Assembly: GCA_947846985.1 (NCBI GenBank)
Contig: CANTUZ010000027.1
Span: 5,092,921-5,156,920, forward strand
Source: Fratercula arctica
Taxonomy: Eukaryota > Chordata > Aves > Charadriiformes > Alcidae
DNA: 64,000 bases
Direction of reading: 5' to 3'
Part shown: positions 33,130 through 63,163 of the stretch, piece after piece
How the letters are laid out: the number at the start of each line of letters is the position of its first letter
Numbering within the stretch: the first letter of the stretch is position 1
Notes under the pieces: generated by a model
What the model was told of the DNA's origin: nothing
The model's input: only the letters and a program-made list of their open reading frames with translations
The model's database searches: none
Program-made: the position numbers and the translations under genes

Positions 33130-36100
33130 ATGACAGCTTTTGAGAATTTTGAATATCCTTGGGATGCTCAAACCAGCCTGGTCCTAGTGTTATGTCTGCT
33201 GAATATGTTCCAGGTCTCGTTTAGGGTTAAACAACTATTTAAGACTACCACCCAGAGATCTGCTCCAAGGCTGGACAGTCAGGGGTGGCATGGCATGTGG
33301 GAGAACATGGACAGGTACTTGGAGAACTTCTCACCTCCAATGGTCTGGGACTTCACCCCTGAACAATTACAGGACCCTGATAGAATAGTAGAATATCTGA
33401 AGGGAAAATGCTGTGGCTATTCTAGAGAGGCACAACTCACCGCACTCTCCTGGGCCCCGGCTAGTGTCTACCAGGCCCTGCTCAGTGCTATGCAGCACCC
33501 TCAGGAGAGAGAGACAGAGACCAGACCAGCAGGTGCTGCGGCTACTGCAGCTCCTGCGAGGGACACTGCGGCTGCTGCAACCCCTGCAACAGGCACTGCG
33601 GCTACTGCAGCCCCTGCAACAGGCACTGTGGCTACTGCAGCCCCTGCGACAGGCACTGCGGCTACTGCAACCCCTGCGAGGGACACTGCGGCTACTGCAA
33701 CTCCTGTGACAGACACTGCAGCTACTGCAACCCCTGCGACAGGCACTGCAGCTACTGCAACCCCTGCGACAGGCACTGTGGCTACGGTAACCCCTGCAAC
33801 AGCCACTACGGCTACTGCAAGCCCTGCAACAGACACTGCGGCTACTGCAACCCCTGTGACAGGCACTGCGGCTACGGTAACCCCTGCGACAGGCACTGCG
33901 GCTACGGTAACCCCTGCGACAGCCACTACGGCTACGGTAACCCCTGCGACAGCCACTGCGGCTACTGCAAACCCTGCAACAGACACTGCCGCTACTGCAA
34001 CCCCTGCGACAGGCACTGCGGCTGCTGCAGCCCCTGCAACGGGCACACCGGCTACTGCAGCCCCTGCGAGGGACACTGCGGCTACTGCAGCCCCTGCGAC
34101 AGGCACTGTGGCTACTGCAACCCCTGCGAGGGACACTGTGCCTACTGCAGCCCCTGCGACAGACACTGCGGCTACTGCATCCCCTCTGATGGCCACTGTG
34201 GCCACTGCAAACCCTGCAACAGGCACTGTGGCTACTACAACCCCTCTGACGGACACTGTGGCTACTGCAGCCCCTGTGACAGACACTACGGCTACTGCAA
34301 CCCCTGCAGAGGACACTGCGGCTGCTGCAACCCCTGCGACAGACACTGTGGCTACTGCAAACCCTGTGACAGACACTGTGGCTACTGCAGCCCCTGTGAC
34401 AGACACTGTGGCTACTGCAGCCCCTGCGACAGGCACTGCCGCTACTGCAACCCCTGTGACAGGCACTGCCGCTACTGCAGCCCCTGTGACAGGCACTGCG
34501 GCTACTGCAGCCCCTGCGACAGGCACTGCGGCTGCTCCAACCCCTGTGACAGCTACTGCGGCTACTCCAACCCCTGTGACAGGCACTGCCGCTACTGCAA
34601 ACCCTACGAGGGACACTGCGGCTACTGCAACCCCTGCGACAGCCACTGCGGCTACTGCAACCCCTGCAGGAGCCACTGCACCTACTGCAGCCCCTGCGAC
34701 GGGCGCTGCGGATACTGCAACCCCTGCGACAGGCACTGTGGCTACTGCAACCCCTACGAGGGACACTGCGGCTACTGCAGCCCCTGCGACAGGCACTGTG
34801 GCTACTGCAACCCCTGCGACAGGCACTGCGGCTACTGCAGCCCCTGCGACGGGCACTGCGGCTACTGCAACCCCTGCGATGGGCACTGCAGCTACTGCAA
34901 CCCCTGCGACAGGCACTGCGGCTGCTCCAACCCCTGTGACAGACAGTGCGGCTACTGCAGCCCCTGCGAAGGGCACTGCGGCTACTGCAGTCCCTGCGAT
35001 GGGCACTGCGGCTACTGCAACCCCTGCGACGGGCACTGCGGCTACTGCAACCCCTGCAACAGGCACTGCGGCTACTGCAACCCCTGTGACGGGCACTGCG
35101 GCTACTGCAACCCCTGCAACAGGCACTGTGGCTACTGCAATGCCTGCGACGGCTACTGCGGCTACTGCAGCCACTGCGACAGGCACTGCGGCTAATGCAA
35201 CCCCTCTGATGGACACTGCAGCTACTGCAGACCCTGCGACAGACACTGTGGCTACTGCAACCCCTGCGACAGGCACTGTGGCTGCTGCAACCCCTGCGAC
35301 AGGCACTGTGGCTACTGCAGCCCCTGCGAGGGACACTGTGGATACTGCAGCCCCTGCGACAGGCACTGCGGCTGCTGCAGCCCCTGCGACAGGCGCTCCG
35401 GCTATGGCAACCCATGTGACAGGCACTGTGGTTACTGCAACCCCTGCGATGGGCACTGCGGCTACTGCAACCCCTGCGAGGGACACTGCAGCTACTACAA
35501 CCCCTCTGAGGGACACTGCGGCTACTGTAGCCCTTCCGACAGACACTGCGGCTACTGCAACGCCTGCGACAGGCACTGCGGCTGCTGCAACCCCTGCGAC
35601 AGACACTGTGGTTACTGCAACCCCTGCAACAGGCACTGTGGCTACTGCAAACCCTGTGACGGGCACTGCGGCTACTGCAACCCCTGCGACAGGCACTGTG
35701 GCTTCTGTAGCCCCTGCGACAGGCACTGTGGCTACTGCAGCCCCTGCGACGGGCACTGCGGCTACTGCAACCCCTCTGACGGACAATGCGGCTATTGCAA
35801 CCACTGCGGCAGACACTGCAGCTACTGCAACCCCTGCGCGGGACACTGTGGCTACTGCAACCCCTGCGAGGGACGCTGCGGCTACTGCAACCCCTGCAGG
35901 AGCCACTGCACCTACTGCAGCCCCTGCGACGGGCGCTGCGGATACTGCAACCCCTGCGGCAGGCACTGCGGCTATTGCAACCCCTGCGGCAGACACTGTG
36001 GCTGCTGCAGCCCCTGCAACAGGCTATGCAGCTGCTGCAGCCCCTGGAACAGATACTGCGGCTACTCCAACCCCTGCGACAGCCACTGCGGCTACTGCAA

Positions 36101-37461
36101 CCCCTGTAGCAGCCAGTGTGGCTACTACAGCCCCTGTGACAGGCTCTGCGGCTACTGCTGTCCCTGCGATGGGCACTGCGGCTACTGCAACCCCTGTGAT
36201 AGGCACTGCGGCTACTACAACCCCTGCGACAGATAGTGCGGCTACTGCAACCCCTGAGACAGGCACTGTGGCTGCTGCGGCCCCTGTGACAGGCACTGCG
36301 GCTATTGCAACCCCTGCGACAGGCACTGCGGCTACCACAACCACTGCAACAGGCACTACAGCTACTGCAGCCCCTGCGACAGGCACTGCGGCTACTGCAG
36401 CCCCTGCGACAGGCTGTGCAGCTGCTGCGGCCCCTGCGACAGGCACTGTGGCTGCTGCAACCCCTGCGACAGGCACTGCGGCTGCTGCGGCCCCTGTGAC
36501 AGGCACTGCGGCTATTGCAACCCCTGCGACAGGCACTGCGGCTACCACAACCACTGCAACAGGCACTGTGGCTACTGCAACCCCTGTGACAGGCACTGTG
36601 GCTACTACAGCCCCTGTGACAGGCACTGCCGCTACTGCAGCCCCTGCGACAGACACTGCGGCTACTGCAGCCCCTGCGACAGGCACTGCGGCTACTGCAA
36701 CCCTTGCGACAGACACTGCGGCTACTGCAACCCCTGCGACAGGCACTGCGGCTGCTACGGCCCCTGCAACAGGCACTGTGGCTACTGCAACCCCTGTGAC
36801 AGGCACTGTGGCTACTGCAACCCCTGTGACAGGCACTGCGGCTATTGCAACCCCTGCGACAGGCACTGCGGCTACCACAACCACTGCAACAGGCACTACA
36901 ACTACTGCAACCCCTGCTACGGGCACTGCGACTACTGCAACCCCTGTGACACGCACTGCCGCTACTGCAGCCCCTGCGACAGACACTGCGGCTACTGCAA
37001 CCCCTGCGACAGGCATTGCGGCTACTGCAGCCCCTGCGAGAGGCACTGCGGCTACTGCAGCCCCTGCGACATGCACTGCGGCTACTGCAACCCCTGCGAC
37101 AGGCACTGCTGCTACTGCAACCCCTCTGATGGACACTGCAGCTACTGCAACCCCTGCGTGGGACACTGTGGCTCCTGCAACCCCTGCGACAGGCACTGCC
37201 ACTACTGAACCCCTGCAGGAGCCACTGCACCTACTGCAACCCATGCAACAGACACTGCGGCTACTGCAATCCCTGCGACAGGCACTGCCACTACTGCAAC
37301 CCCTGCAACAGACACTGCGGCTACTGCAATCCCTGCGACAGGCACTGCACCTACTGCAACCTCTGCAACAGACACTGTGGCTACTACAGCCCCTGCGACG
37401 GGCACTGCGGATACTGCAACCCCTGCGACAGACACTGTGGCTACTGCAACCCCTGCGATAG
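33130..37461 (+). CDS. gag: ERV gag N-terminal ORF running into the 30-bp repeat array
   Basis: 1,443 codons from the ATG at 33130. Residues 1-134 are unique and matrix-like, with MDRYLENFSPPMVWDFTPEQ, a YLKGKCCGY segment and an ALSWAPASVYQALLSAM helix, which resembles gag N-termini of avian ERVs (family assignment from memory). Residues about 135-1358 are some 122 uninterrupted ten-residue repeats of the type ATPATGTAAT, rich in Thr, Ala and Pro, which could form a disordered and possibly O-glycosylated stretch (inference). At 37207 a 1-nt deletion (CTACTGAACCCC) moves translation into the Leu/Gln frame, and the ORF ends at 37461. The gag frame upstream and the repeat frame agree exactly, and no indel occurs across 3.67 kb. 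Protease, pol and env are not in the window. Confidence 0.7.
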   Translation: MTAFENFEYPWDAQTSLVLVLCLLNMFQVSFRVKQLFKTTTQRSAPRLDSQGWHGMWENMDRYLENFSPPMVWDFTPEQLQDPDRIVEYLKGKCCGYSREAQLTALSWAPASVYQALLSAMQHPQERETETRPAGAAATAAPARDTAAAATPATGTAATAAPATGTVATAAPATGTAATATPARDTAATATPVTDTAATATPATGTAATATPATGTVATVTPATATTATASPATDTAATATPVTGTAATVTPATGTAATVTPATATTATVTPATATAATANPATDTAATATPATGTAAAAAPATGTPATAAPARDTAATAAPATGTVATATPARDTVPTAAPATDTAATASPLMATVATANPATGTVATTTPLTDTVATAAPVTDTTATATPAEDTAAAATPATDTVATANPVTDTVATAAPVTDTVATAAPATGTAATATPVTGTAATAAPVTGTAATAAPATGTAAAPTPVTATAATPTPVTGTAATANPTRDTAATATPATATAATATPAGATAPTAAPATGAADTATPATGTVATATPTRDTAATAAPATGTVATATPATGTAATAAPATGTAATATPAMGTAATATPATGTAAAPTPVTDSAATAAPAKGTAATAVPAMGTAATATPATGTAATATPATGTAATATPVTGTAATATPATGTVATAMPATATAATAATATGTAANATPLMDTAATADPATDTVATATPATGTVAAATPATGTVATAAPARDTVDTAAPATGTAAAAAPATGAPAMATHVTGTVVTATPAMGTAATATPARDTAATTTPLRDTAATVALPTDTAATATPATGTAAAATPATDTVVTATPATGTVATANPVTGTAATATPATGTVASVAPATGTVATAAPATGTAATATPLTDNAAIATTAADTAATATPARDTVATATPARDAAATATPAGATAPTAAPATGAADTATPAAGTAAIATPAADTVAAAAPATGYAAAAAPGTDTAATPTPATATAATATPVAASVATTAPVTGSAATAVPAMGTAATATPVIGTAATTTPATDSAATATPETGTVAAAAPVTGTAAIATPATGTAATTTTATGTTATAAPATGTAATAAPATGCAAAAAPATGTVAAATPATGTAAAAAPVTGTAAIATPATGTAATTTTATGTVATATPVTGTVATTAPVTGTAATAAPATDTAATAAPATGTAATATLATDTAATATPATGTAAATAPATGTVATATPVTGTVATATPVTGTAAIATPATGTAATTTTATGTTTTATPATGTATTATPVTRTAATAAPATDTAATATPATGIAATAAPARGTAATAAPATCTAATATPATGTAATATPLMDTAATATPAWDTVAPATPATGTATTEPLQEPLHLLQPMQQTLRLLQSLRQALPLLQPLQQTLRLLQSLRQALHLLQPLQQTLWLLQPLRRALRILQPLRQTLWLLQPLR

Positions 37462-38300
37462 GCGCTACAGCTACTGCAACCCCTCTGATGGACACTGCGG
37501 CCATTGCAACCACTGCGGCAGACACTGCAGCTACTGCAAGCCCTGCGAGGGACACTGACACTACTGCAATCCCTGCGACAGGCACTGCGGCTACTGCAAC
37601 CCCTGTGACAGACACTGCGGCTACTGCGGCCCCTGCGACAGACACTGCGGCTACTGCAACACCTGCGAGAGACACTGCCGCTACTGCAGCCCCTGCGACA
37701 GACACTGCGGCTACTGCAGCCCCTGCGACAGGCACTGCCGCTACTGCAAACCCTGCGAGAGACACTGCCGCTACTGCAGCCCCTGCGACAGGCTCTGCGG
37801 CTACTGCAGCCCCTGCGACAGGCACTGCGGCTACTACAACCCCTGCGACAGGCACTGCGGCTGCTGCACAGCGGCTACTGCAGTCCCTGCGATGGAGACT
37901 GCGGCTACTGCAACCCCTGTGACAGGCACTGCCGCTACTGCAGCCCCTGCGACAGACACTGCGGCTACTGCAACCCCTGTGACAGGCACTGCGGCTACTA
38001 CAACCGCTGCGGCACACACTGCGGGTTCTGCAACACCTGCGACAGGCACTGTGGGTACTGCAATCCCTCTGATGGACACTGCGACTACTGCAACCCCTGC
38101 GACAGACACTCCTGCTACGGCAACACCTGCGACAGGCACTGCGGCTACTGCAACCCCTGCGACAGGCTCTGTGGCTACTGCAACCCCTGTGACAGGCACT
38201 GCGGCTACTGCAACCCCTGCAATGCGCACTGCGGCTAATGCGGCCCCTGCGAGGGACACTGCGGTAATGCAACCCCCGCGATAACCACTGTGGCTGCTGC
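37207..38300 (+). repeat. Array segment duplicated further right (37.1-38.3 kb versus 41.6 and 44.4 kb)
   Basis: The block around the frame-breaking CTACTGAACCCCTGCAGG (37201-37218) recurs at about 41635-41652, offset 4,434 bp. The block with CAACCGCTGCGGCACACAC (38001) and the TAATGCGG(C)CCC / GGTAATGCAACCCC endings recurs at 44350-44690, offset 6,349 bp. Shared rare variants over hundreds of bases indicate segmental duplication within the array. Confidence 0.8.
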
Positions 38301-38913
38301 AACCCCTGCGACAGGCACTGCAGCTACTACAACCCCTGCAACAGGCACTGTGGCTACTGCAGCCCCTGCAACAGGCACTGCGGCTACTGCAACCCCTGCG
38401 ACAGGCACTGCGGCTACTGCAACCCCTGCGACAGGTCCTGCGGCAGCTGCAGGCCCTGCAACAGGCACTGCGGCTACTGCAGCCCCTGCGACAGACACTG
38501 CGGCTACTGCAGCCCCTGCAACAGACACTGGCTACTGCAACCCCTGCGACAGACACTGCGGCTACTGCAGCCCCTGTGACAGGCACTGCGGATACTGCAG
38601 CCCCTGCGACAGACACTGCGGCTACTGCATCCACTCTGATGGCCACTGTGGCCACTGCAAACCCTGCAACAGGCACTGTGGCTACTGCAACCCCTGCAAC
38701 AGGCACTGCGGCTACTGCAGCCCCCTGCGACAGGCACTGCGGCTACTGCAGCCCATGCGACAGGGCACTGCGGCTACTGCAATCCACTCCTGAATGTGGC
38801 CTACTGCAACCCTGCAACAGGCACTGTGACTACTGCAACCCCTGCAATAGGCGCTGCGGCTACTCCAACCCCTGCGAGGGACACTGTGGCTACTGTAACC
38901 CCTCTGACGGACA

Positions 38914-41900
38914 CTCGGCTATTGCAACCCCTGTGGCAGACACTGCCGCTACTGCATCCCCTGCGACAGGCACTGCGGCTACTGCAACCCCTGCGACAGG
39001 CACTGTGGCTACTGCAGCCCCTGCAACAGACACTGCGGCTACTGCAACCCCTGTGACAGGCTCTGCGGCTACTGCAGCCCCTGCGGCAGACACTGCGGCT
39101 ACTGCAACCCTGCGACAGGCACTGCAGGCTACTTACAACCATGCGAGAAGACACTGCCGCTACTGCAGCCCCTGCAACAGGCACTGCGGCTACTGCAACC
39201 CCTGCGACAGGCACTGCGGCTACTGCAGCCCCTGCGACAGGCACTGCGGCTACTGCAGCCCCTGCGACAGGCACTGCGGCTACTGCAGCCCATGCGACAG
39301 GCACTGCGGCTACTGCAACCCCTGCAACAGGCACTGCGGCTACTGCAACCCCTGTGACAGGCGCTGCGGCTACTGCAGCCCCTGCGACAGGCACTGCGGC
39401 TACTGCAGCCCATGCGACGGGCACTGCGGCTACTGCAGCCCCTGCAACAGTCACTGTGGCTACTGCAACCCCTGTGACAGACACTGCGGCTACTGCAGCC
39501 GCTGTGACAGGCACTGCGGCTACTGCAGCCCCTGCGACAGACACTGCGGCTACTGCATCCACTCTGATGGCCACTGCAAACCCTGCAACAGGCACTGTGC
39601 CTACCGCAACCCCTGCAATAGGCGCTGCGGCTACTGCAACCCCTGCGAGGGACACTGTGGCTACTGCAACCCCTGCGAGGGACACTGTGCCTACTGCAGC
39701 CCCTGTGACAGACACTGCAGCTACTTCATCCCCTCTGATGGCCACTGTGGCCACTGTAAACCCTGCAACAGGCACTGTGGCTACTGTAACCCCTCTGACG
39801 GACACTCGGCTACTGCAACCCCTGCGACAGGCACTGTGGCTACTGCAGCCCCTGCGACAGGCACTGCGGCTACTGCAACCCCTGCGACAGACACTGTGGC
39901 TACTGCAGCCCCTGCAACAGACACTGTGGCTACTGCAGCCCCTGCGACAGGCACTGCGGCTACTGCAGCCCCTGCGACAGACACTGTGGCTACTGCAGCC
40001 CCTGCGACAGGCACTGCGGCTACTGCAACCCCTGCGACAGGCACTGCGGCTACTGCAACCCCTGCGACGGACACTGCGGCTACTGCAACCCCTGCGACAG
40101 ACACTGCGGCTACTGCAACCCCTGCGACAGGCACTGCGGCTACTGCAACCCCTGCAGGAGCCACTGCGGCTACTGCAACCCCTGCGACAGGCACTGCGGC
40201 TACTGCAACCCCTGCGACAGGCACTGCGGCTACTGCAACCCCTGCGACAGACACTGCGGCTACTGCAACCCCTGCGACAGGCACTGCGGCTACTGCAACC
40301 CCTGCGACAGGCACTGCGGCTACTGCACCCCTCTGATGGCACTGTGGCTACTGCACCCCTGCAACAGGCACTGTGGCTACTGCAACCCCTGTGACAGGCA
40401 CTGCGGCTACTGCAACCCCTGCGACAGGCACTGTGGCTACTGCAGCCCCTGCGACAGGCACTGCGGCTACTGCAACCCCTGCGACAGACACTGTGGCTAC
40501 TGCAGCCCCTGCGACAGGCACTGCGGCTACTGCAGCCCCTGCGACAGGCACTGTGGCTACTGCAGCCCCTGCAACAGGCACTGCGGCTACTGCAGCCCCT
40601 GCGACAGGCACTGTGGCTACTGCAACCCCTGCGACAGACACTGCTGCTACTGCAACCCCTGCGACAGACACTGCGGCTGCTGCAACCCCTGCGACAGGCA
40701 CTGCGGCTACTGCAGCCCCTGCGACAGACACTGCGGCTACTGCATCCCCTCTGACGGCCACTGTGGCTACTGCAAACCCTGCAACAGGCACTGTGGCTAC
40801 TGCAACCCCTGCAACAGGCACTGCGGCTACTGCAGCCCCTGCGACAGGCACTGCGGCTACTGCAACCCCTGCGACAGGCACTGCGGCTACTGCAGCCCCT
40901 GCGACAGACACTGCGGCTACTGCAACCCCTGCGACAGGCACTGCGGCTACTGCAGCCCCTGCGACAGGCACTGCGGCTACTGCAACCCCTGCGACAGGCA
41001 CTGCGGCTACTGCAACCCCTGCGACAGGCACTGCGGCTACTGCAACCCCTGCGACAGGCACTGCGGCTACTGCAACCCCTGCGACAGGCACTGCGGCTAC
41101 TGCAGCCCCTGCGACAGGCACTGCGGCTACTGCAACCCCTGCGACAGGCACTGCGGCTACTGCAACCCCTCTGACGGACACTGCGGTTATTGCAACCCCT
41201 GCGACAGACACTGCGGCTACTGCAACCCCTGTGACAGACACTGCGGCTACTGCAACCCCTGTGACAGGCACTGCGGCTACTGCAACCCCTGCGACAGGCA
41301 CTGTGGCTACTGTAACCCCTCTGACGGACACTCGGCTATTGCAACCCCTGCGACAGGCACTGTGGCTACTGCAGCCCCTGCGACAGGCACTGCGGCTACT
41401 GCAACCCCTGCAACAGACACTGTGGCTACTGCAGCCCCTGCAACAGGCACTGCGTCTACTGCAGCCCCTGCGGCAGACACTGTGGATACTGCAGCCCCTG
41501 CGACATGCACTGCGGCTACTGCAACCCCTGCGACAGGCACTGCCGCTACTGCAACCCCTCTGATGGACACTGCAGCTACTGCAACCCCTGCGTGGGACAC
41601 TGTGGCTCCTGCAACCCCTGCGACAGGCACTGCCGCTACTGAACCCCTGCAGGAGCCACTGCACCTACTGCAACCCATGCAACAGACACTGCGGCTACTG
41701 CAATCCCTGCGACAGGCACTGCGTCTACTGCAGCCCCTGCGACAGACACTGCGGCTACTGCAGCCCCTGTGACAGGCAGTGCGGCTACTGCAGCCCCTGC
41801 GACAGACACTGCGGCTACTTCATCCCCTCTGATGGCCACTGTGGCCACTGTAAACCCTGCAACAGGCACTGTGGCTACTGTAACCCCTCTGACGGACACT

Positions 41901-44900
41901 CGGCTATTGCAACCCCTGCGACAGGCACTGTGGCTACTGCAGCCCCTGCGACAGGCACTGCGGCTACTGCAACCCCTGCAACAGACACTGTGGCTACTGC
42001 AGCCCCTGCAACAGGCACTGCGTCTACTGCAGCCCCTGCGGCAGACACTGTGGATACTGCAGCCCCTGCAACAGGCACTGCGGCTACTGCAGCCCCTGCG
42101 ACGGGCAGTGTGGCTACTGCAACCCCTGCGACAGACACTGCTGCTACTGCAACCCCTGCGACAGACGCTGCGGCTGCGGCAACCCCTGTGACAGGCAGTG
42201 CGGCTACTGCAGCCCCTGCGACAGACACTGCGGCTACTGCATCCACTCTGATGGCCACTGTGGCCACTGCAAACCCTGCAACAGGCACTGTGGCTACTGC
42301 AACCCCTGCAACAGGCACTGCGGCTACTGCAGCCCCTGCGACGGGCAGTGTGGCTACTGCAACCCCTGCGACAGGCACTGCGTCTACTGCAGCCCCTGCG
42401 ACAGGCACTGCGGCTACTGCAGCCCCTGTGACAGGCAGTGCGGCTACTGCAGCCCCTGCGACAGACACTGCGGCTACTGCATCCACTCTGATGGCCACTG
42501 TGGCCACTGCAAACCCTGCAACAGGCACTGCGGCTACTGCAACCCCTGCAACAGGCACTGCGGCTACTGCAACCCCTGCGACAGGCACTGCGGCTACTGC
42601 AGCCCCTGTGACAGGCACTGCGGCTACTGCAGCCCATGCGACGGGCACTGCGACTACTGCAACCCCTGTGACAGACACTGCGGCTACTGCAGCCCCTGCG
42701 ACAGACACTGCGGCTACTGCATCCACTCTGATGGCCACTGTGGCCACTGCAAACCCTGCAACAGGCACTGCGGCTACTGCAGCCCCTGCAACAGACACTG
42801 TGGCTACTGCAACCCCTGTGACAGACACTGCGGCTACTGCAGCCCCTGCGACAGACACTGCGGCTACTGCATCCACTCTGATGGCCACTGCAAACCCTGC
42901 AACAGGCACTGTGCCTACTGTAACCCCTGCAATAGGCGCTGCGGCTACTGCAACCCCTGCGAGGGACACTGTGGCTACTGCAACCCCTGCGAGGGACACT
43001 GTGCCTACTGCAGCCCCTGTGACAGACACTGCAGCTACTTCATCCCCTCTGATGGCCACTGTGGCCACTGTAAACCCTGCAACAGGCACTGTGGCTACTG
43101 TAACCCCTCTGACGGACACTCGGCTATTGCAACCCCTGCAACAGGCACTGTGGCTACTGCATCCCCTGTGACAGGCACTGCGGCTACTGCAACCCCTGCA
43201 ACAGACACTGTGGCTACTGCAGCCCCTGCAACAGGCACTGCGTCTACTGCAACCCCTGTGACAGGCTCTGCGGCTACTGCAGCCCCTGCGGCAGACACTG
43301 TGGATACTGCAGCCACTGCGACAGGCTCTGCGTCTACTGCAACCCCTGTGACAGGCTCTGCGGCTACTGCAGCCCCTGCGGCAGACACTGTGGATACTGC
43401 AGCCCCTGCGACAGGCTCTGCGGCTACTGCAGCCCCTGCAACAGGCACTGCGGCTACTGCAGCCCCTGCGACGGGCACTGTGGCTACTGCAACCCCTGCG
43501 ACAGGCACTGCCACTACTGCAACCCCTGCGACAGACACTGCGGCTGCGGCAACATCTGCGACAGACACTGCGGCTACTGCAACCCCTGCAACAGGCACTG
43601 CGGCTACTGCAACCCCTGCGACAGGCGCTGCGGCTACTGCAGCCCCTGCGACAGGCACTGTGGCTACTGCAGGCCCTGCGATGGGCACTGCGGCTACTGC
43701 AACGCCTGCGACAGGCCCTGTGGCTACTGCCACCCCTGTGACAGACACTGCGGCTACTGCAGCCCCTGCGACAGGCACTGCGGCTACTGCAGCCCCTGCG
43801 ACAGGCACTGCGGCTACTGCATCCACTCTGATGGCCACTGCAAACCCTGCAACAGGCACTGTGCCTACTGCAACCCCTGCAATAGGCGCCTCGGCTACTG
43901 CAACCCCTGCGAGGGACACTGTGGCTACTGCAACCCCTGCGAGGGACACTGTGCCTACTGCAGCCCCTGTGACAGACACTGCAGCTACTTCATCCCCTCT
44001 GATGGCCACTGTGGCCACTGTAAACCCTGCAACAGGCACTGTGGCTACTGTAACCCCTCTGACGGACACTCGGCTATTGCAACCCCTGCGACAGGCACTG
44101 TGGCTACTGCAAACCCTGCGACAGACACTGCGGCTACTGCAACCCCTGCAACAAACACTGCGACTACTGCAACCCCTGCGACAGGCACTGCGGCTACTGC
44201 AACCCCTGTGACAGACACTGCGGCTACTGCAACCCCTGCGACAGGCACTGCGGCTACTGCAACACCTGCGAGAGACACTGCCGCTACTGCAGCCCCTGCG
44301 ACAGACACTGCGGCTACTGCAACCCCTGTGACAGGCACTGGGGCTATTACAACCGCTGCGGCACACACTGCGGGTTCTGCAACACCTGCGACAGGCACTG
44401 TGGGTACTGCAATCCCTCTGATGGACACTGCGACTACTGCAACCCCTGCGACAGACACTCCTGCTACGGCAACACCTGCGACAGGCACTGCGGCTGCTGC
44501 AACCCCTGCGACACCCACTGCGGCTACTGCAACCCCTGCGACAGGCACTGCGGCTACTGCAACCCCTGTGACAGGCACTGCCGCTACTGAAACCCCTGCA
44601 ATGCGCACTGCGGCTAATGCGGCCCCTGCGAGGGACACTGCGGTAATGCAACCCCTGCGATAACCACTGTGGCTGCTGCAACCCCTGTGACAGACACTAC
44701 GGCTGCTGCGGCCCCTGTGACAGACACTGTGGCTACTGCAACCCCTGCGACAGGCTCTGCGGCTACTGCAGCCCCTGCGACAGGCACTGCGGCTACTGCA
44801 ACCCCTGCGACAGGCACTGCGGCTACTGCAGCCCCTGCGACAGGCACTGCGGCTACTGCAGCCCCTGCGACAGGCACTGCGGCTACTGCAGCCCCTGCGA

Positions 44901-50900: not shown

Positions 50901-53900
50901 ACGGGCACTGTGGCTACTGCAACCCCTGCGACAGACGCTGCGGCAACATCTGCGACAGACACTGCGGCTACTGCAACCCCTGCAACAGGCACTGCGGCTA
51001 CTGCAACCCCTGTGACAGGCTCTGCGGCTACTGCAGCCCCTGCGGCAGACACTGTGGATACTGCAGCCCCTGCGACAGGCACTGCGTCTACTGCAACCCC
51101 TGTGACAGGCTCTGCGGCTACTGCAGCCCCTGCGGCAGACACTGTGGCTACTGCAGCCCCTGCGACAGGCTCTGCGGCTACTGCAGCCCCTGCAACAGGC
51201 ACTGCGGCTACTGCAACCCCTGCGACAGGCACTGCGGCTACTGCAACCCCTGCGACAGGCGCTGCGGCTGCGGCAACATCTGCGACAGACACTGCGGCTA
51301 CTGCAACCCCTGCAACAGGCACTGCGGCTACTGCAACCCCTGCGACAGGCGCTGCGGCTACTGCAGCCCCTGCAACAGGCACTGTGGCTACTGCAGCCCC
51401 TGCGATGGGCACTGCGGCTACTGCAACGCCTGCGACAGGCCCTGTGGCTACTGCCACCCCTGTGACAGACACTGCGGCTACTGCAGCCCCTGTGACAGGC
51501 ACTGCGGCTACTGCAGCCCCTGCGACAGGCACTGCGGCTACTGCATCCACTCTGATGGCCACTGCAAACCCTGCAACAGGCACTGTGCCTACTGCAACCC
51601 CTGCGACAGGCGCTGCGGCTACTGCAACCCCTGCGAGGGACACTGTGGCTACTGCAACCCCTGCGAGGGACACTGTGCCTACTGCAGCCCCTGTGACAGA
51701 CACTGCAGCTACTTCATCCCCTCTGATGGCCACTGTGGCCACTGTAAACCCTGCAACAGGCACTGTGGCTACTGTAACCCCTCTGACGGACACTCGGCTA
51801 TTGCAACCCCTGCGACAGGCACTGTGGCTACTGCAGCCCCTGCGACAGGCACTGCGGCTACTGCAACCCCTGCAACAGACACTGTGGCTACTGCAGCCCC
51901 TGCAACAGGCACTGCGTCTACTGCAGCCCCTGCGGCAGACACTGTGGATACTGCAGCCCCTGCAACAGGCACTGCGGCTACTGCAGCCCCTGCGACGGGC
52001 AGTGTGGCTACTGCAACCCCTGCGACAGACACTGCTGCTACTGCAACCCCTGCGACAGACACTGCGGCTGCGGCAACCCCTGTGACAGGCAGTGCGGCTA
52101 CTGCAGCCCCTGCGACAGACACTGCGGCTACTGCATCCACTCTGATGGCCACTGTGGCCACTGCAAACCCTGCAACAGGCACTGTGGCTACTGCAACCCC
52201 TGCAACAGGCACTGCGGCTACTGCAGCCCCTGCGACGGGCAGTGTGGCTACTGCAACCCCTGCGACAGGCACTGCGTCTACTGCAGCCCCTGCGACAGAC
52301 ACTGCGGCTACTGCAGCCCCTGTGACAGGCACTGCGGCTACTGCAGCCCCTGCGACAGACACTGCGGCTACTGCATCCACTCTGATGGCCACTGTGGCCA
52401 CTGCAAACCCTGCAACAGGCACTGTGGCTACTGCAACCCCTGCAACAGGCACTGCGGCTACTGCAACCCCTGCGACAGGCACTGCGGCTACTGCAGCCCC
52501 TGCGACAGGCACTGCGGCTACTGCAGCCCATGCGACGGGCACTGCGGCTACTGCAGCCCCTGCAACAGACACTGTGGCTACTGCAACCCCTGTGACAGAC
52601 ACTGCGGCTACTGCAGCCCCTGCGACAGACACTGCGGCTACTGCATCCACTCTGATGGCCACTGCAAACCCTGCAACAGGCACTGTGCCTACTGTAACCC
52701 CTGCAATAGGCGCTGCGGCTACTGCAACCCCTGCGAGGGACACTGTGGCTACTGCAGCCCCTGTGACAGGCAGTGCGGCTACTGCAACCCCTGCGACAGG
52801 CACTGCCACTACTGCAACCCCTGCGACAGACACTGCGGCTGCGGCAACATCTGCGACAGACACTGCGGCTACTGCAACCCCTGCAACAGGCACTGCGGCT
52901 ACTGCAACCCCTGCGACAGGCGCTGCGGCTACTGCAGCCCCTGCGACAGGCACTGTGGCTACTGCAGCCCCTGCGATGGGCACTGCGGCTACTGCAACCC
53001 CTGCGACAGGCCCTGTGGCTACTGCCACCCCTGTGACAGACACTGCGGCTACTGCAGCCCCTGTGACAGGCACTGCGGCTACTGCAGCCCCTGCGACAGG
53101 CACTGCGGCTACTGCATCCACTCTGATGGCCACTGCAAACCCTGCAACAGGCACTGTGCCTACTGCAACCCCTGCAATAGGCGCCTCGGCTACTGCAACC
53201 CCTGCGAGGGACACTGTGGCTACTGCAACCCCTGCGAGGGACACTGTGCCTACTGCAGCCCCTGTGACAGACACTGCAGCTACTTCATCCCCTCTGATGG
53301 CCACTGTGGCCACTGTAAACCCTGCAACAGGCACTGTGGCTACTGTAACCCCTCTGACGGACACTCGGCTACTGCAACCCCTGCGACAGGCACTGTGGCT
53401 ACTGCAAACCCTGCGACAGACACTGCGGCTACTGCAACCCCTGCAAGAAACACTGCGACTACTGCAACCCCTGCGACAGGCACTGCGGCTACTGCAACCC
53501 CTGTGACAGGCACTGTGGCTACTGCAACCCCTGCGACAGGCACTGCGGCTACTGCAGCCCCTGCGACAGGCACTGCGGCTACTGCAACCCCTGCGAGAGA
53601 CACTGCCGCTACTGCAGCCCCTGTGACAGGCACTGCGGCTACTGCAGCCCCTGCGACAGACACTGCGGCTACTGCAGCCCCTGCGGCAGACAGTGTGGCT
53701 ACTGCAGCCCCTGCGACAGGCTCTGCGGCTGCTGCAGCCCCTGCAACAGGCACTGCGGCTACTGCAGCCCCTGCAACAGACACTGTGGCTACTGCAACCC
53801 CTGTGACAGACACTGCGGCTACTGCAACCCCTGCGACAGACACTGCGGCTACTGCATCCACTCTGATGGCCACTGCAAACCCTGCAACAGGCACTGTGCC

Positions 53901-56900
53901 TACTGCAACCCCTGCAATAGGCGCCTCGGCTACTGCAACCCCTGCGAGGGACACTGTGGCTACTGCAACCCCTGCGAGGGACACTGTGCCTACTGCAGCC
54001 CCTGTGACAGACACTGCAGCTACTTCATCCCCTCTGATGGCCACTGTGGCCACTGTAAACCCTGCAACAGGCACTGTGGCTACTGTAACCCCTCTGACGG
54101 ACACTCGGCTACTGCAACCCCTGCGACAGGCACTGTGGCTACTGCAAACCCTGCGACAGACACTGCGGCTACTGCAACCCCTGCAAGAAACACTGCGACT
54201 ACTGCAACCCCTGCGACAGGCACTGCGGCTACTGCAACCCCTGTGACAGGCACTGTGGCTACTGCAACCCCTGCGACAGGCACTGCGGCTACTGCAGCCC
54301 CTGCGACAGGCACTGCGGCTACTGCAACCCCTGCGAGAGACACTGCCGCTACTGCAGCCCCTGTGACAGGCACTGCGGCTACTGCAGCCCCTGCGACAGA
54401 CACTGCGGCTACTGCAGCCCCTGCGGCAGACAGTGTGGCTACTGCAGCCCCTGCGACAGGCTCTGCGGCTGCTGCAGCCCCTGCAACAGGCACTGCGGCT
54501 ACTGCAGCCCCTGCAACAGACACTGTGGCTACTGCAACCCCTGTGACAGACACTGCGGCTACTGCAACCCCTGCGACAGACACTGCGGCTACTGCATCCA
54601 CTCTGATGGCCACTGCAAACCCTGCAACAGGCACTGTGCCTACTGCCACCCCTGCAATAGGCGCTGCGGCTACTGCAACCCCTGCGAGGGACACTGTGGC
54701 TACTGCAACCCCTGCGAGGGACACTGTGCCTACTGCAGCCCCTGTGACAGACACTGCAGCTACTTCATCCCCTCTGATGGCCACTGTGGCCACTGTAAAC
54801 CCTGCAACAGGCACTGTGGCTACTGTAACCCCTCTGACGGACACTCGGCTATTGCAACCCCTGCGACAGGCACTGTGGCTACTGCAGCCCCTGCGACAGG
54901 CACTGCGGCTACTGCAACCCCTGCAACAGACACTGTGGCTACTGCAGCCCCTGCAACAGGCACTGCGTCTACTGCAGCCCCTGCGGCAGACACTGTGGAT
55001 ACTGCAGCCCCTGCGACAGGCTCTGCGGCTGCTGCAGCCCCTGCAACAGGCACTGCGGCTACTGCAGCCCCTGCGACGGGCAGTGTGGCTACTGCAACCC
55101 CTGCGACAGACACTGCTGCTACTGCAACCCCTGCGACAGACGCTGCGGCTGCGGCAACCCCTGTGACAGGCAGTGCGGCTACTGCAGCCCCTGCGACAGA
55201 CACTGCGGCTACTGCATCCACTCTGATGGCCACTGTGGCCACTGCAAACCCTGCAACAGGCACTGTGGCTACTGCAACCCCTGCGACAGGCACTGCGTCT
55301 ACTGCAGCCCCTGCGACAGACACTGCGGCTACTGCAGCCCCTGTGACAGGCAGTGCGGCTACTGCAGCCCCTGCGACAGACACTGCGGCTACTGCATCCA
55401 CTCTGATGGCCACTGCAAACCCTGCAACAGGCACTGTGCCTACTGCAACCCCTGCAATAGGCGCTGCGGCTACTGCAACCCCTGCGAGGGACACTGTGGC
55501 TACTGCAACCCCTGCGAGGGACACTGTGCCTACTGCAGCCCCTGTGACAGACACTGCAGCTACTTCATCCCCTCTGATGGCCACTGTGGCCACTGTAAAC
55601 CCTGCAACAGGCACTGTGGCTACTGTAACCCCTCTGACGGACACTCGGCTATTGCAACCCCTGCAACAGGCACTGTGGCTACTGCAACCCCTGCAACAGA
55701 CCCTGTGGCTACTGCAGCCCCTGCGACAGGCACTGCGTCTACTGCAACCCCTGTGACAGGCTCTGCGGCTACTGCAGCCCCTGCGGCAGACACTGTGGAT
55801 ACTGCAGCCCCTGCGACAGGCTCTGCGTCTACTGCAACCCCTGTGACAGGCTCTGCGGCTACTGCAGCCCCTGCGGCAGACACTGTGGATACTGCAGCCC
55901 CTGCGACAGGCTCTGCGGCTACTGCAGCCCCTGCAACAGGCACTGCGGCTACTGCAGCCCCTGCGACGGGCACTGTGGCTACTGCAACCCCTGCGACAGA
56001 CGCTGCGGCAACATCTGCGACAGACACTGCGGCTACTGCAACCCCTGCAACAGGCACTGCGTCTACTGCAACCCCTGTGACAGGCTCTGCGGCTACTGCA
56101 GCCCCTGCGGCAGACACTGTGGATACTGCAGCCACTGCGACAGGCTCTGCGTCTACTGCAACCCCTGTGACAGGCTCTGCGGCTACTGCAGCCCCTGCGG
56201 CAGACACTGTGGATACTGCAGCCCCTGCGACAGGCTCTGCGGCTACTGCAGCCCCTGCAACAGGCACTGCGGCTACTGCAGCCCCTGCGACGGGCACTGT
56301 GACTACTGCAACCCCTGCGACAGACGCTGCGGCTGCGGCAACATCTGCGACAGACACTGCGGCTACTGCAACCCCTGTGACAGGCACTGCGGCTACTGCA
56401 ACCCCTGCGACAGGCGCTGCGGCTACTGCAGCCCCTGCAACAGGCACTGTGGCTACTGCAGCCCCTGCGATGGGCACTGCGGCTACTGCAACGCCTGCGA
56501 CAGGCCCTGTGGCTACTGCCACCCCTGTGACAGACACTGCGGCTACTGCAGCCCCTGCGAGGGACACTGTGGCTACTGCAACCCCTGCGAGGGACACTGT
56601 GCCTACTGCAGCCCCTGTGACAGACACTGCAGCTACTTCATCCCCTCTGATGGCCACTGTGGCCACTGTAAACCCTGCAACAGGCACTGTGGCTACTGTA
56701 ACCCCTCTGACGGACACTCGGCTATTGCAACCCCTGCAACAGGCACTGTGGCTACTGCAACCCCTGCAACAGACCCTGTGGCTACTGCAGCCCCTGCGAC
56801 ATGCACTGCATCTACTGCAACCCCTGTGACAGGCTCTGCGGCTACTGCAGCCCCTGCGGCAGACACTGTGGATACTGCAGCCACTGTGACAGGCTCTGCG

Positions 56901-59900
56901 TCTACTGCAACCCCTGTGACAGGCTCTGCGGCTACTGCAGCCCCTGCGGCAGACACTGTGGATACTGCAGCCCCTGCGACAGGCTCTGCGGCTACTGCAG
57001 CCCCTGCGACGGGCACTGTGGCTACTGCAGCCCCTGCGACGGGCACTGCGGCTACTGCAACCCCTGCGACAGACGCTGCGGCAACATCTGCGACAGACAC
57101 TGCGGCTACTGCAACCCCTGCAACAGGCACTGCGGCTACTGCAACCCCTGTGACAGGCTCTGCGGCTACTGCAGCCCCTGCGGCAGACACTGTGGATACT
57201 GCAGCCACTGCGACAGGCTCTGCGTCTACTGCAACCCCTGTGACAGGCTCTGCGGCTACTGCAGCCCCTGCGGCAGACACTGTGGATACTGCAGCCCCTG
57301 CGACAGGCTCTGCGGCTACTGCAGCCCCTGCGACAGGCACTGCGGCTACTGCAGCCCCTGCGACGGGCACTGCGGCTACTGCAACCCCTGCGACAGACGC
57401 TGCGGCTGCGGCAACATCTGCGACAGACACTGCGGCTACTGCAACCCCTGCGACAGGCACTGCGGCTACTGCAACCCCTGCGACAGGCGCTGCGGCTACT
57501 GCAGCCCCTGCAACAGGCACTGTGGCTACTGCAGCCCCTGCGATGGGCACTGCGGCTACTGCAACGCCTGCGACAGGCCCTGTGGCTACTGCCACCCCTG
57601 TGACAGACACTGCGGCTACTGCAGCCCCTGTGACAGGCACTGCGGCTACTGCAGCCCCTGCGACAGGCACTGCGGCTACTGCATCCACTCTGATGGCCAC
57701 TGCAAACCCTGCAACAGGCACTGTGCCTACTGCAACCCCTGCAATAGGCGCTGCGGCTACTGCAACCCCTGCGAGGGACACTGTGGCTACTGCAACCCCT
57801 GCGAGGGACACTGTGCCTACTGCAGCCCCTGTGACAGACACTGCAGCTACTTCATCCCCTCTGATGGCCACTGTGGCCACTGTAAACCCTGCAACAGGCA
57901 GTGTGGCTACTGTAACCCCTCTGACGGACACTCGGCTATTGCAACCCCTGCGACAGGCACTGTGGCTACTGCAGCCCCTGCGACAGGCACTGCGGCTACT
58001 GCAACCCCTGCAACAGACACTGTGGCTACTGCAGCCCCTGCAACAGGCACTGCGTCTACTGCAGCCCCTGCGGCAGACACTGTGGATACTGCAGCCCCTG
58101 CAACAGGCACTGCGGCTACTGCAGCCCCTGCGACGGGCAGTGTGGCTACTGCAACCCCTGCGACAGACACTGCTGCTACTGCAACCCCTGCGACAGACAC
58201 TGCGGCTGCGGCAACCCCTGTGACAGGCAGTGCGGCTACTGCAGCCCCTGCGACAGACACTGCGGCTACTGCATCCACTCTGATGGCCACTGTGGCCACT
58301 GCAAACCCTGCAACAGGCACTGTGGCTACTGCAACCCCTGCAACAGGCACTGCGGCTACTGCAGCCCCTGCGACGGGCAGTGTGGCTACTGCAACCCCTG
58401 CGACAGGCACTGCGTCTACTGCAGCCCCTGCGACAGACACTGCGGCTACTGCAGCCCCTGTGACAGGCAGTGCGGCTACTGCAGCCCCTGCGACAGACAC
58501 TGCGGCTACTGCATCCACTCTGATGGCCACTGTGGCCACTGCAAACCCTGCAACAGGCACTGTGGCTACTGCAACCCCTGCAACAGGCACTGCGGCTACT
58601 GCAACCCCTGCGACAGGCACTGCGGCTACTGCAGCCCCTGTGACAGGCACTGCGGCTACTGCAGCCCATGCGACGGGCACTGCGGCTACTGCAGCCCCTG
58701 CAACAGACACTGTGGCTACTCCAACCCCTGTGACAGACACTGCGGCTACTGCAGCCCCTGCGACAGACACTGCGGCTACTGCATCCACTCTGATGGCCAC
58801 TGCAAACCCTGCAACAGGCACTGTGCCTACTGCAACCCCTGCAATAGGCGCTGCGGCTACTGCAACCCCTGCGAGGGACACTGTGGCTACTGCAGCCCCT
58901 GTGACAGGCAGTGCGGCTACTGCAACCCCTGCGACAGGCACTGCCACTACTGCAACCCCTGCGACAGACACTGCGGCTGCGGCAACATCTGCGACAGACA
59001 CTGCGGCTACTGCAACCCCTGCAACAGGCACTGCGGCTACTGCAACCCCTGCGACAGGCGCTGCGGCTACTGCAGCCCCTGCGACAGGCACTGTGGCTAC
59101 TGCAGCCCCTGCGATGGGCACTGCGGCTACTGCAACGCCTGCGACAGGCCCTGTGGCTACTGCCACCCCTGTGACAGACACTGCGGCTACTGCAGCCCCT
59201 GTGACAGGCACTGCGGCTACTGCAGCCCCTGCGACAGGCACTGCGGCTACTGCAGCCCCTGCGACAGGCACTGCGGCTACTGCATCCACTCTGATGGCCA
59301 CTGCAAACCCTGCAACAGGCACTGTGCCTACTGCAACCCCTGCAATAGGCGCCTCGGCTACTGCAACCCCTGCGAGGGACACTGTGGCTACTGCAACCCC
59401 TGCGAGGGACACTGTGCCTACTGCAGCCCCTGTGACAGACACTGCAGCTACTTCATCCCCTCTGATGGCCACTGTGGCCACTGTAAACCCTGCAACAGGC
59501 ACTGTGGCTACTGTAACCCCTCTGACGGACACTCGGCTACTGCAACCCCTGCGACAGGCACTGTGGCTACTGCAAACCCTGCGACAGACACTGCGGCTAC
59601 TGCAACCCCTGCAAGAAACACTGCGACTACTGCAACCCCTGCGACAGGCACTGCGGCTACTGCAACCCCTGTGACAGGCACTGTGGCTACTGCAACCCCT
59701 GCGACAGGCACTGCGGCTACTGCAGCCCCTGCGACAGGCACTGCGGCTACTGCAACCCCTGCGAGAGACACTGCCGCTACTGCAGCCCCTGTGACAGGCA
59801 GTGCGGCTACTGCAGCCCCTGCGACAGACACTGCGGCTACTGCATCCACTCTGATGGCCACTGTGGCCACTGCAAACCCTGCAACAGGCACTGTGGCTAC

Positions 59901-61756
59901 TGCAACCCCTGCGACAGGCACTGCGTCTACTGCAGCCCCTGCGACAGACACTGCGGCTACTGCAGCCCCTGTGACAGGCAGTGCGGCTACTGCAGCCCCT
60001 GCGACAGACACTGCGGCTACTGCATCCACTCTGATGGCCACTGCAAACCCTGCAACAGGCACTGTGCCTACTGCAACCCCTGCAATAGGCGCTGCGGCTA
60101 CTGCAACCCCTGCGAGGGACACTGTGGCTACTGCAACCCCTGCGAGGGACACTGTGCCTACTGCAGCCCCTGTGACAGACACTGCAGCTACTTCATCCCC
60201 TCTGATGGCCACTGTGGCCACTGTAAACCCTGCAACAGGCACTGTGGCTACTGTAACCCCTCTGACGGACACTCGGCTATTGCAACCCCTGCAACAGGCA
60301 CTGTGGCTACTGCAACCCCTGCAACAGACCCTGTGGCTACTGCAGCCCCTGCGACATGCACTGCGTCTACTGCAACCCCTGTGACAGGCTCTGCGGCTAC
60401 TGCAGCCCCTGCGGCAGACACTGTGGATACTGCAGCCCCTGCGACAGGCTCTGCGTCTACTGCAACCCCTGTGACAGGCTCTGCGGCTACTGCAGCCCCT
60501 GCGGCAGACACTGTGGATACTGCAGCCCCTGCGACAGGCTCTGCGGCTGCTGCAGCCCCTGCAACAGGCACTGCGGCTACTGCAGCCCCTGCGACGGGCA
60601 CTGTGGCTACTGCAACCCCTGCGACAGACGCTGCGGCAACATCTGCGACAGACACTGCGGCTACTGCAACCCCTGCAACAGGCACTGCGTCTACTGCAAC
60701 CCCTGCGACAGGCGCTGCGGCTACTGCAGCCCCTGCGGCAGACACTGCGGCTACTGCAGCCCCTGCGACAGGCTCTGCGGCTACTGCAACCCCTGTGACA
60801 GGCTCTGCGGCTACTGCAGCCCCTGCGGCAGACACTGTGGATACTGCAGCCCCTGCGACAGGCTCTGCGGCTACTGCAGCCCCTGCAACAGGCACTGCGG
60901 CTACTGCAACCCCTGCGACAGGCACTGCGGCTACTGCAACCCCTGCGACAGACGCTGCGGCTGCGGCAACATCTGCGACAGACACTGCGGCTACTGCAAC
61001 CCCTGCGACAGGCACTGCGGCTACTGCAACCCCTGCGACAGGCGCTGCGGCTACTGCAGCCCCTGCAACAGGCACTGTGGCTACTGCAGCCCCTGCGATG
61101 GGCACTGCGGCTACTGCAACGCCTGCGACAGGCCCTGTGGCTACTGCCACCCCTGTGACAGACACTGCGGCTACTGCAGCCCCTGCGACGGGCACTGTGA
61201 CTACTGCAACCCCTGCGACAGACGCTGCGGCTGCGGCAACATCTGCGACAGACACTGCGGCTACTGCAACCCCTGCAACAGGCACTGCGGCTACTGCAAC
61301 CCCTGCGACAGGCGCTGCGGCTACTGCAGCCCCTGCAACAGGCACTGTGGCTACTGCAGCCCCTGCGATGGGCACTGCGGCTACTGCAACGCCTGCGACA
61401 GGCCCTGTGGCTACTGCCACCCCTGTGACAGACACTGCGGCTACTGCAGCCCCTGTGACAGGCACTGCGGCTACTGCAGCCCCTGCGACAGGCACTGCGG
61501 CTACTGCATCCACTCTGATGGCCACTGCAAACCCTGCAACAGGCACTGTGCCTACTGCAACCCCTGCAATAGGCGCTGCGGCTACTGCAACCCCTGCGAG
61601 GGACACTGTGGCTACTGCAACCCCTGCGAGGGACACTGTGCCTACTGCAGCCCCTGTGACAGACACTGCAGCTACTTCATCCCCTCTGATGGCCACTGTG
61701 GCCACTGTAAACCCTGCAACAGGCACTGTGGCTACTGTAACCCCTCTGACGGACAC
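38914..61756 (+). repeat. Higher-order repeats marked by a shared 1-nt deletion
   Basis: The variant GGACACTCGGCT (a G lost from GGACACTGCGGCT) occurs 21 times, at about 38914, 39805, 41331, 41899, 43119, 44069, 46309, 47885, 48625, 49425, 50579, 51793, 53364, 54104, 54844, 55644, 56717, 57931, 59532, 60272 and 61756. It is preceded each time by the same train of variants: CCCTCTGATGGCCACTG, TAAACCCTGCAACAGGCA, CCCTCTGACGGACACTC. Spacings are 891, 1526, 568, 1220, 950, 2240, 1576, 740, 800, 1154, 1214, 1571, 740, 740, 800, 1073, 1214, 1601, 740 and 1484 bp. Confidence 0.9.
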
Positions 61757-63163
61757 TCGGCTACTGCAACCCCTGCGACAGGCACTGTGGCTACTGCAGC
61801 CCCTGCGATGGGCACTGCGGCTACTGCAACCCCTGCAACAGACACTGCGACTACTGCAACCCCTGCGACAGGCACTGCGGCTACTGCAACCCCTGTGACA
61901 GGCACTGCGGCTACTGCAGCCCCTGCGACAGGCACTGTGGCTACTGCAACCCCTGCGACAGGCACTGCGGCTACTGCAACCCCGGCGAGAGACACTGCCG
62001 CTACTGCAGCCCCTGTGACAGGCACTGCGGCTACTGCAGCCCCTGCGACAGACACTGCGGCTACTGCAGCCCCTGCGGCAGACAGTGTGGCTACTGCAGC
62101 CCCTGCGACAGACACTGCGGCTGCTGCAGCCCCTGCAACAGGCACTGCGGCTACTGCAGCCCCTGCGACGGGCACTGTGGCTACTGCAACCCCTGCGGCA
62201 GGCACTGCGGCTACTGCAACCCCTGCGACAGATGCTGCGGCTGCGGCAACATCTGCGACAGACACTGCGGCTACTGCAACCCCTGCAACAGGCACTGTGG
62301 CTACTGCAGCCCCTGCGACAGGCACTGCGGCTACTGCAACCCCTGCGACAGGCACTGTGGCTACTGCAACCCCTGCGACAGGCACTGCGTCTACTGCAAC
62401 CCCTGTGACAGGCTCTGCGGCTACTGCAGCCCCTGCGGCAGACACTGCGGCTACTGCAACCCCTGCGACAGGCACTGCGGCTACTGCAGCCCCTGCGAGA
62501 GACACTGCCACTACTGCAGCCCCTGCGACGGGCACTGCGGCTACTGCAGCCCCTGTGACAGGCACTGCGGCTACTGCAGCCCCTGCGACAGACACTGCGG
62601 CTACTGCAACCCCTGCGGCAGACACTGTGGCTACTGCAGCCCCTGCGAGAGGCTCTGCGGCTGCTGCAGCCCCTGCAACAGGCACTGCGTCTACTGCAGC
62701 CCCTGCGACGGGCACTGTGGCTACTGCAACCCCTGCGGCAGGCACTGCGGCTACTGAAACCCCTGCGACAGACGCTGCAGCTGCGGCAACATCTGCGACA
62801 GACACTGTGGCTACTGCAACCCCTGCAACAGGCACTGCGGCTACTGCAACCCCTGCGACAGGCACTGCGGCTACTGCAGCCCCTGCGACAGGCACTGCGG
62901 CTACTGCAGCCCCTGCGAGGGACACTGCGACTACTTCAACCCCTGCGACAGACACTGCGGCTACTGCAGCCCCTGTGACAGGCACTGTGGCTACTGCAAC
63001 CCCTGGAACAGGCACTCCGACTACTGTAACCCCTGCGACAGACACTGCGGCTACTGCAACCCCTGTAGCAGCCACTGCCATGAACCAGGGAACCAACCCG
63101 TGCCAGTATCCGTTGCCCCCATACAGACTAAGAAGTACACAAAGAAATCAGTTCGCTTTGTAA
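39141..63163 (+). other. Long array-internal open frames (not independent genes)
   Basis: Open frames of 400-1,040 codons tile the array on both strands, for example 45828-48947, 49509-52085, 50663-53506, 56801-59674 and 60356-63163 on plus, and 50555-52531 and 56693-58669 on minus. Each plus frame typically begins Cys-rich, switches to the Ala/Thr form at the first CTCGGCT deletion and to the Leu/Gln form at the second, then stops where CTGCGA has become CTGTGA. They arise from the 30-bp period and are not annotated as genes. Confidence 0.8.
45285..45780 (+). repeat. Indel-dense patch of the array
   Basis: The 30-bp register breaks many times within 500 bp: CCCTGTACGAGGG, CCCTGCTGACGG, CTACTTGCAACC, CCTGCTGGACAGGACAC, CTGCCGGCTAC, CTGCAGGCAGACACTGCGCTAC. 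Almost all are single-base insertions or losses in short G or C runs. This contrasts with the clean registers on both sides and looks like uncorrected long-read error or a collapsed junction, though true decay is possible. Confidence 0.7.

What the first reader, a model, noticed from the sequence alone, without database searches (positions are those of the whole stretch)
33532..63078. A 29.5-kb coding megasatellite inside an endogenous retrovirus gag gene
About 985 copies of a 30-bp unit lie between a recognisable gag N-terminus and a capsid N-terminus. This is far beyond any packageable retroviral genome, so the array must have expanded after integration, or the locus is a host-amplified gag. 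An expanded in-gag minisatellite of this size is, to my knowledge, not a standard ERV feature.
Basis: partly seen in the sequence, partly recalled or inferred. Interest (0 to 1): 0.9.

Follow-up and report, generated by a model that had tools for sequence, protein, structure and literature searches.

The report
Retroviral gag repeat grown into satellite
In a bird genome, a short 30-base repeat that normally occurs a few times inside one gene of an endogenous retrovirus appears, in one copy of that virus, nearly a thousand times, which suggests how a viral gene can seed new satellite DNA.

Summary
The array is in the assembly as described: a 30-bp unit, about 985 copies, 33536-63065, between two conserved pieces of one avian endogenous-retrovirus gag. 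In the same genome, 53 of 54 other gag copies that I could measure carry 1-15 units at this place and one carries about 44. In 14 of 19 related proteins measured, mostly raptors and cranes, there are 1-7. So the unit is an ancestral, length-variable, coding decapeptide repeat, and this locus is a private expansion. It is not a 'coding megasatellite': only about the first 3.7 kb keeps the gag frame; the rest shifts frame and is largely block duplications (higher-order repeats), and the third-codon-position excess seen in other copies is gone. The scaffold downstream is 69-73% GC and 52-90% tandem repeat, like avian dot chromosomes, where local repeat expansion is described. Best explanation: germline expansion of a retroviral minisatellite after integration. 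Caveats: 200-N gaps on both sides, indel-rich stretches, no reads; exact length and chromosomal place are unproven. New variant of a known kind: LTR-element-derived satellite.

The parts
32220..32606 (+). Piece of a non-LTR retrotransposon (CR1-like, name recalled) left of the ERV remnant
   Evidence: tblastn of P0017 part 374-501, 51% identity
32649..33129 (+). ERV 5' piece: end of a possible LTR, primer-site-like word, gag leader; leader not in frame with the next part
   Evidence: blastn to L002-L008 from 32649; protein homology from 32808
33130..33533 (+). gag N-terminal segment, 97-98% identical to young family copies
33536..37207 (+). Array domain 1: about 124 units of 30 bp in the gag frame, none in block repeats of 12 or more units
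37208..63065 (+). Array domain 2: about 870 units with many phase changes and block duplications (higher-order repeats), e.g. 50399-53116 repeated at 56537-59254 with 99.3% identity
45280..45761 (+). Indel-dense stretch inside the array (4 of 16 units intact), possibly unpolished sequence; a weaker one at about 38721-39146
63077..63335 (+).
31954..32153 (.). 200-N scaffold gap, left end of the array contig
63336..63535 (.). 200-N scaffold gap, right end of the array contig

Best explanation
An avian ERV family carries in gag a coding decapeptide repeat (30 bp, roughly AATATPATGT) whose copy number drifts, mostly between 1 and 15, while the element spreads. One copy, placed by the assembly on a 6.0-Mb scaffold whose neighbouring sequence is GC-rich and full of tandem repeats, has lost its gag frames, and its repeat has grown in germline DNA to about 985 units (29.5 kb). 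Shown: the ancestral short repeat at the same site, the outlying size here, frame loss, block duplications, uneven divergence of the flanks, the repeat-dense scaffold. Inferred: that growth came after integration; that unequal exchange or gene conversion between misaligned repeats drove it, first unit by unit and later by kilobase blocks; and that the chromosomal setting favoured it.
For: 53 of 54 other measured copies have 1.1-15.2 units and one 44.2. 14 of 19 related proteins measurable: 1.3-7.3 units. 37 of 38 other copies keep the frame from gag-N across the repeat to the downstream segment, and their units vary most at codon position 3 (0.106, 0.132, 0.189), while the window's vary least there (0.14-0.17, 0.20-0.22, 0.10-0.13). 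632 of 995 units lie in repeated runs of 12 or more units, none of them in domain 1. Flank mosaic: mismatches to L002 are 54 of about 432 in the leader but 4 of 317 in gag-N; in five other copies the two rates differ by at most about 1.6-fold. Readable C27 sequence downstream (L051-L055) is 69-73% GC and 52-90% tandem repeat against 2% in window 1-33000. Precedents: PMC7004042 and PMC12954441, passages.
Against: No reads seen; both contig ends are gaps and the indel-dense stretches look unpolished. The C27 placement is by scaffolding only, and the next contig to the left is AT-rich and repeat-poor. A second array of about 44 units lies on C6, a 52-Mb scaffold, so some growth happens without a dot-like setting. 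The unit has no unusual hairpin-forming tendency.
Confidence: 0.72

Rival explanations
1. Assembly artefact: the array exists but is much shorter, inflated by mis-joined or duplicated read segments, or the contig is a chimera of two ERV copies.
For: Gaps at both ends. A stretch near 45.4 kb matches 38.9-39.1 kb with almost no substitutions but many one-base gaps, as uncorrected reads would give. The leader and gag-N differ tenfold in divergence from L002, which a chimeric contig would also give.
Against: Domain 1 alone (about 124 units, 17% mean pairwise divergence, no block repeats) exceeds every other copy measured; block repeats outside the indel-dense stretches differ mainly by substitutions (18 in 2,718 bp, no gaps in the best pair).
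Confidence: 0.17
2. Host co-option: a gag-derived protein with an amplified repeat is selected and expressed.
For: An open frame of 1,443 codons runs from 33130; gag-N is little diverged.
Against: The unit has no stop in any forward frame, so openness is cheap (sequence); units vary least at third positions; six of nine private gag-N changes are replacements; frames are broken before and after.
Confidence: 0.03
3. The repeat reached hundreds of units during retroviral replication, and this copy integrated at nearly its present size.
For: Copy number varies among copies (1-15, one 44), as copying slips would give.
Against: 29.5 kb of extra RNA exceeds what retroviral particles are known to package (general knowledge); nested block duplications; no scored copy is closer than 90% over leader plus gag-N.
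Confidence: 0.03
4. An older satellite was captured by the ERV and spread with it, rather than growing from it.
For: None found; the same logic was weighed for plant Ogre satellites (PMC7004042, passages).
Against: The repeat is coding and in frame in 37 of 38 other copies and in gag proteins of other bird orders, and two exact patterns show no other dense array.
Confidence: 0.03

Closest known systems
Satellites grown from tandem repeats inside Ogre LTR-retrotransposons of Lathyrus sativus (PMC7004042; passages)
   Same: Short tandem arrays at a fixed place in a dispersed LTR element that occasionally expanded into long arrays.
   Different: There the repeats lie downstream of gag-pol (3' untranslated) and expansion occurred mainly at primary constrictions; here the repeat is coding, inside gag, in a vertebrate ERV, at one locus.
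Local repeat expansion ('sequence stuttering') on avian dot chromosomes (PMC12954441; passages)
   Same: Imperfect local tandem expansion on small GC-rich bird chromosomes, tentatively ascribed there to recombination and conversion.
   Different: Described there for genes and introns; here an ERV's own minisatellite, tens of kilobases with higher-order repeats; length polymorphism not tested.
The host ERV family itself (raptor, crane and other bird gag proteins; same-genome copies)
   Same: Same gag and same decapeptide repeat position. The pol of a crane relative has foamy-virus Pr125Pol as its best solved-structure match.
   Different: Measured members carry 1-15 units (one about 44), not about 985.

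Membership tests
Avian ERV gag family | Homologous gag on both sides of the repeat | tested here: met
Avian ERV gag family | Decapeptide repeat at the same position | tested here: met
Avian ERV gag family | Complete provirus with two LTRs, pol and target-site duplication | tested here: inconclusive
   Contig ends 271 bp past the array; no pol match elsewhere in the window or in the readable fetched C27 flanks; left LTR at most partial
ERV class III / spuma-like | pol affinity | tested here: inconclusive
   Only a crane relative's pol was tested: foamy-virus Pol ranks first in PDB; the window itself holds no pol
LTR-element-derived satellite (Ogre type) | Short array at a fixed site in dispersed copies plus an expanded array continuous with element sequence | tested here: met
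LTR-element-derived satellite (Ogre type) | Array in the untranslated part downstream of gag-pol | tested here: not met
   Array is inside gag; so it works like, but is not, an Ogre-type satellite
Avian dot-chromosome sequence stuttering | Small, very GC-rich, repeat-dense chromosome | tested here: inconclusive
   C27 is 5.99 Mb; L051-L055 are 69-73% GC and 52-90% tandem repeat; but contig placement rests on scaffolding and the left contig is AT-rich
Avian dot-chromosome sequence stuttering | Length polymorphism between individuals | not testable with these tools
   one assembly only
   30-bp unit; gag frame lost after about 3.7 kb

The most novel reading that the evidence does not exclude
Retroviral gag repeats are a recurrent seed of new vertebrate satellites: ERVs that land on avian dot chromosomes have their coding minisatellite turned by local recombination into higher-order-repeat arrays, and this locus is a case caught in the act, with a founder domain still in coding phase (33536-37207) beside a homogenised, block-duplicated domain.
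Probability: 0.25. Interest if true: 0.75.

Novelty: new variant of a known kind. Interest (0 to 1): 0.52.

Why it matters
The founders of satellites are usually lost. Here they are still legible: sibling proviruses with a handful of units, one with about 44, one with about 985, all at the same gag position. That makes the birth of a higher-order-repeat satellite from a coding sequence directly testable, and it links ERV content to the repeat growth reported on avian dot chromosomes.

Tried and rejected
Host co-option of gag: rejected on codon-position pattern, frame loss and replacement changes. Hairpin-driven slippage: folding energies of three consensus units equal those of shuffles (z -0.10 and 0.40). 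Captured satellite: no second dense array with two exact patterns, though exact patterns undercount: they matched only twice in the C6 array of about 44 units. Long in-frame arrays in other birds: a search limited to proteins of about 794-2525 aa gave two, both crane proteins with pol domains; P0016 shows about one unit by eye, P0019 was not measured. Viral contigs: unit pattern 0 matches, and no confirmed relative of P0016. Phage collection: none. Rfam: none. The first leader alignment had four of its five other rows on the wrong strand; it was redone. Literature: seven answered full-text searches listed no title or abstract start about an expanded in-gag tandem array in a bird ERV; only listings were seen, plus passages of PMC7004042, PMC9974502 and PMC12954441. 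Most subscription papers are not held, so absence in print is not shown. Not done: 9 of the 23 other loci with exact matches were not measured; the genome search with P0001 and an exact four-unit pattern did not complete.

Full report
What was checked. Tandem Repeats Finder gives one array, 33536-63065, period 30, 991.7 copies. A wrap-around alignment gives 995 whole or partial units with consensus GCGGCTACTGCAACCCCTGCGACAGGCACT; 888 are full length without indels, of 244 distinct types, averaging 90% identity to the consensus. The TRF score is 36000 against a threshold of 50, so chance is not an issue.

It is inside a retroviral gag. A protein search with the segment before the array found 18 proteins; the 16 that name an organism are all bird (Morphnus, Buteo, Accipiter, Tyto, Grus, Limosa). 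tblastn of these to the window places gag homology from 32808 to the array and again from 63061 to the gap. The relatives carry at this join a decapeptide repeat such as GTAATPTPAT, which is the window's repeat read in the gag frame; 14 of 19 proteins could be measured by script and have 1.3-7.3 units (seven raptor, five crane, two unnamed). Pfam names no domain in the gag pieces. A crane relative's pol has reverse transcriptase and RNase H domains above Pfam's cut-offs and weaker integrase matches, and its best solved-structure matches are foamy-virus Pol. A primer-site word in L002 and in a C6 copy looks like the tRNA-Lys type (recalled).

The same genome gives the decisive comparison. The window lies on C27 (5,986,937 bases) at 5,092,921-5,156,920 of a 1.21-Gb assembly; gag-N has 850 first-look candidates there, 40 scored, one of them the window itself. 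Of the 39 others, 38 have 33-405 bp (1.1-13.5 units) between the two anchors; the 39th (L044) has no downstream anchor because its repeat, about ten units by eye, runs straight into pol. Those copies were chosen for likeness to gag-N, so I also took loci chosen for the repeat: of 23 other loci with an exact 39-base match (26 matches), 12 were fetched, two were already in hand (L027, L035), and nine were not measured. Ten of the 12 give 6.3-12.2 units, one 15.2, and one on C6 44.2, found by probing its edges. Four copies met through the leader or downstream searches have 2.3-4.3 units (L084, L086-L088; from coordinates); L085 lacks the downstream anchor and is cut by other sequence. So 53 of 54 measured copies have 1-15 units and one about 44; the window has 985. 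Two exact variants put 42 of 68 and 31 of 38 genome-wide matches in this array, with at most two at any other locus. That does not exclude diverged arrays: the C6 array of about 44 units matched only twice.

What the array has become. In other copies the repeat behaves as coding DNA: 37 of 38 keep the frame across it, although 8 of 38 have a stop somewhere from gag-N to the downstream segment, and unit diversity is highest at third codon positions (0.106, 0.132, 0.189; 179 units picked by likeness to the consensus). In the window diversity is lowest there (0.14-0.17, 0.20-0.22, 0.10-0.13 in the three large domains), and the phase of the unit changes many times. Open frames mean little, because the consensus unit has no stop in any forward frame. 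Domain 1 (33536-37207, about 124 units) is in the gag frame; none of its units lies in a block repeat. In the rest, blocks dominate: 632 of 995 units lie in runs of at least 12 units repeated elsewhere with at most 2 mismatches per unit (0 before 37208, 110 from there to 45279, 522 after). A lag of 25 units (740 bp) recurs, and a 2.7-kb block repeats 6138 bp away at 99.3% identity. The unit's CpG sites are often decayed (C to T in 30% and 22%, G to A in 21% at three of four CpG positions, 4% at the fourth), which suggests methylation.

Flanks. Against the young copy L002 the window has 54 mismatches in about 432 leader bases (12.5%), 4 in 317 of gag-N (1.3%), and 18 in 255 downstream (7.1%). 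In five other copies the leader rate is 1.0-1.6 times the gag-N rate (L084-L088; L086 over 107 gag-N bases only), so the tenfold contrast is peculiar to the window. Of nine private changes in gag-N six are replacements; of 17 downstream ten are silent, so selection explains the stillness of gag-N poorly. Gene conversion from a younger sibling beside the array fits; recombination during reverse transcription or a chimeric contig is not excluded. No scored copy is closer than 90% over leader plus gag-N (40 of 1148 candidates scored); the downstream segment's best match is 96% (C14), a copy with 3.3 units whose leader is again 83%. The leader and the segment after the array are out of frame with their neighbours, so this gag is broken; copies with an open gag across the repeat exist elsewhere.

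Setting. Readable C27 sequence from the window's end onward (L051-L055, 42.3 kb) is 69-73% GC with 52-90% of bases in tandem-repeat rows, against 2% in window 1-33000; the last 10 kb of C27 is 68% GC and 87% repeat, and the first 10 kb is a 180-bp satellite. This resembles avian dot chromosomes (PMC9974502, passages), on which local repeat expansion has been described and tentatively ascribed to recombination and conversion (PMC12954441, passages). Against this: the contig to the left of the array is AT-rich and repeat-poor, and the array contig meets 200-N gaps at both ends, so its place on C27 is a scaffolding statement.

Mechanism. Most likely two steps. While the family spread, the coding repeat gained and lost units by copying slips (1-15, once 44; the cause is inferred). 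After one integration the dead copy's repeat grew in germline DNA by misaligned exchange or conversion, unit-wise first (domain 1), then by kilobase blocks (domain 2). The second step is inferred from block structure, frame loss, mosaic flank and context. The nearest precedent is the plant Ogre case (PMC7004042, passages); the differences are the coding gag site, the vertebrate ERV, and the single locus.

Limits. No reads were available. The stretch 45280-45761, and less so 38721-39146, is rich in small indels and looks unpolished. Length is as good as the assembly, but domain 1 alone exceeds every other copy measured.

Noticed in passing
proteins P0010, P0011, P0012: Predicted 'USP4' isoforms of Buteo, Accipiter and Tyto match this ERV gag; P0010 has USP4 domains (DUSP, Ubiquitin_3) in front of the gag, so a copy may lie in or next to USP4 in several birds.
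   Followed up: no
window 8801-12843: Two long open frames (374 and 971 aa), the second with endonuclease and reverse transcriptase domains: a near-intact CR1-like (name recalled) non-LTR retrotransposon.
   Followed up: partly
G000:C6:15579334-15580661 (L062, L070-L081): A sibling provirus with about 44 nearly identical units, length a multiple of three, between gag pieces and followed by pol-like sequence.
   Followed up: partly
G000:C25 (28.4 Mb): Rich in this ERV: 17 of 40 scored matches and 35 of 40; size and ERV density suggest the W chromosome (inference).
   Followed up: no
G000:C27:1-10000 (L057): The start of C27 is a tandem array with a 180-bp period over the whole 10 kb.
   Followed up: no
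window 2856-4864: Open frames that read like pieces of a ubiquitin-specific protease (recognised by eye and memory, not searched).
   Followed up: no
window 6961-7347: A 213-bp unit repeated 1.8 times within open frames of two registers.
   Followed up: no
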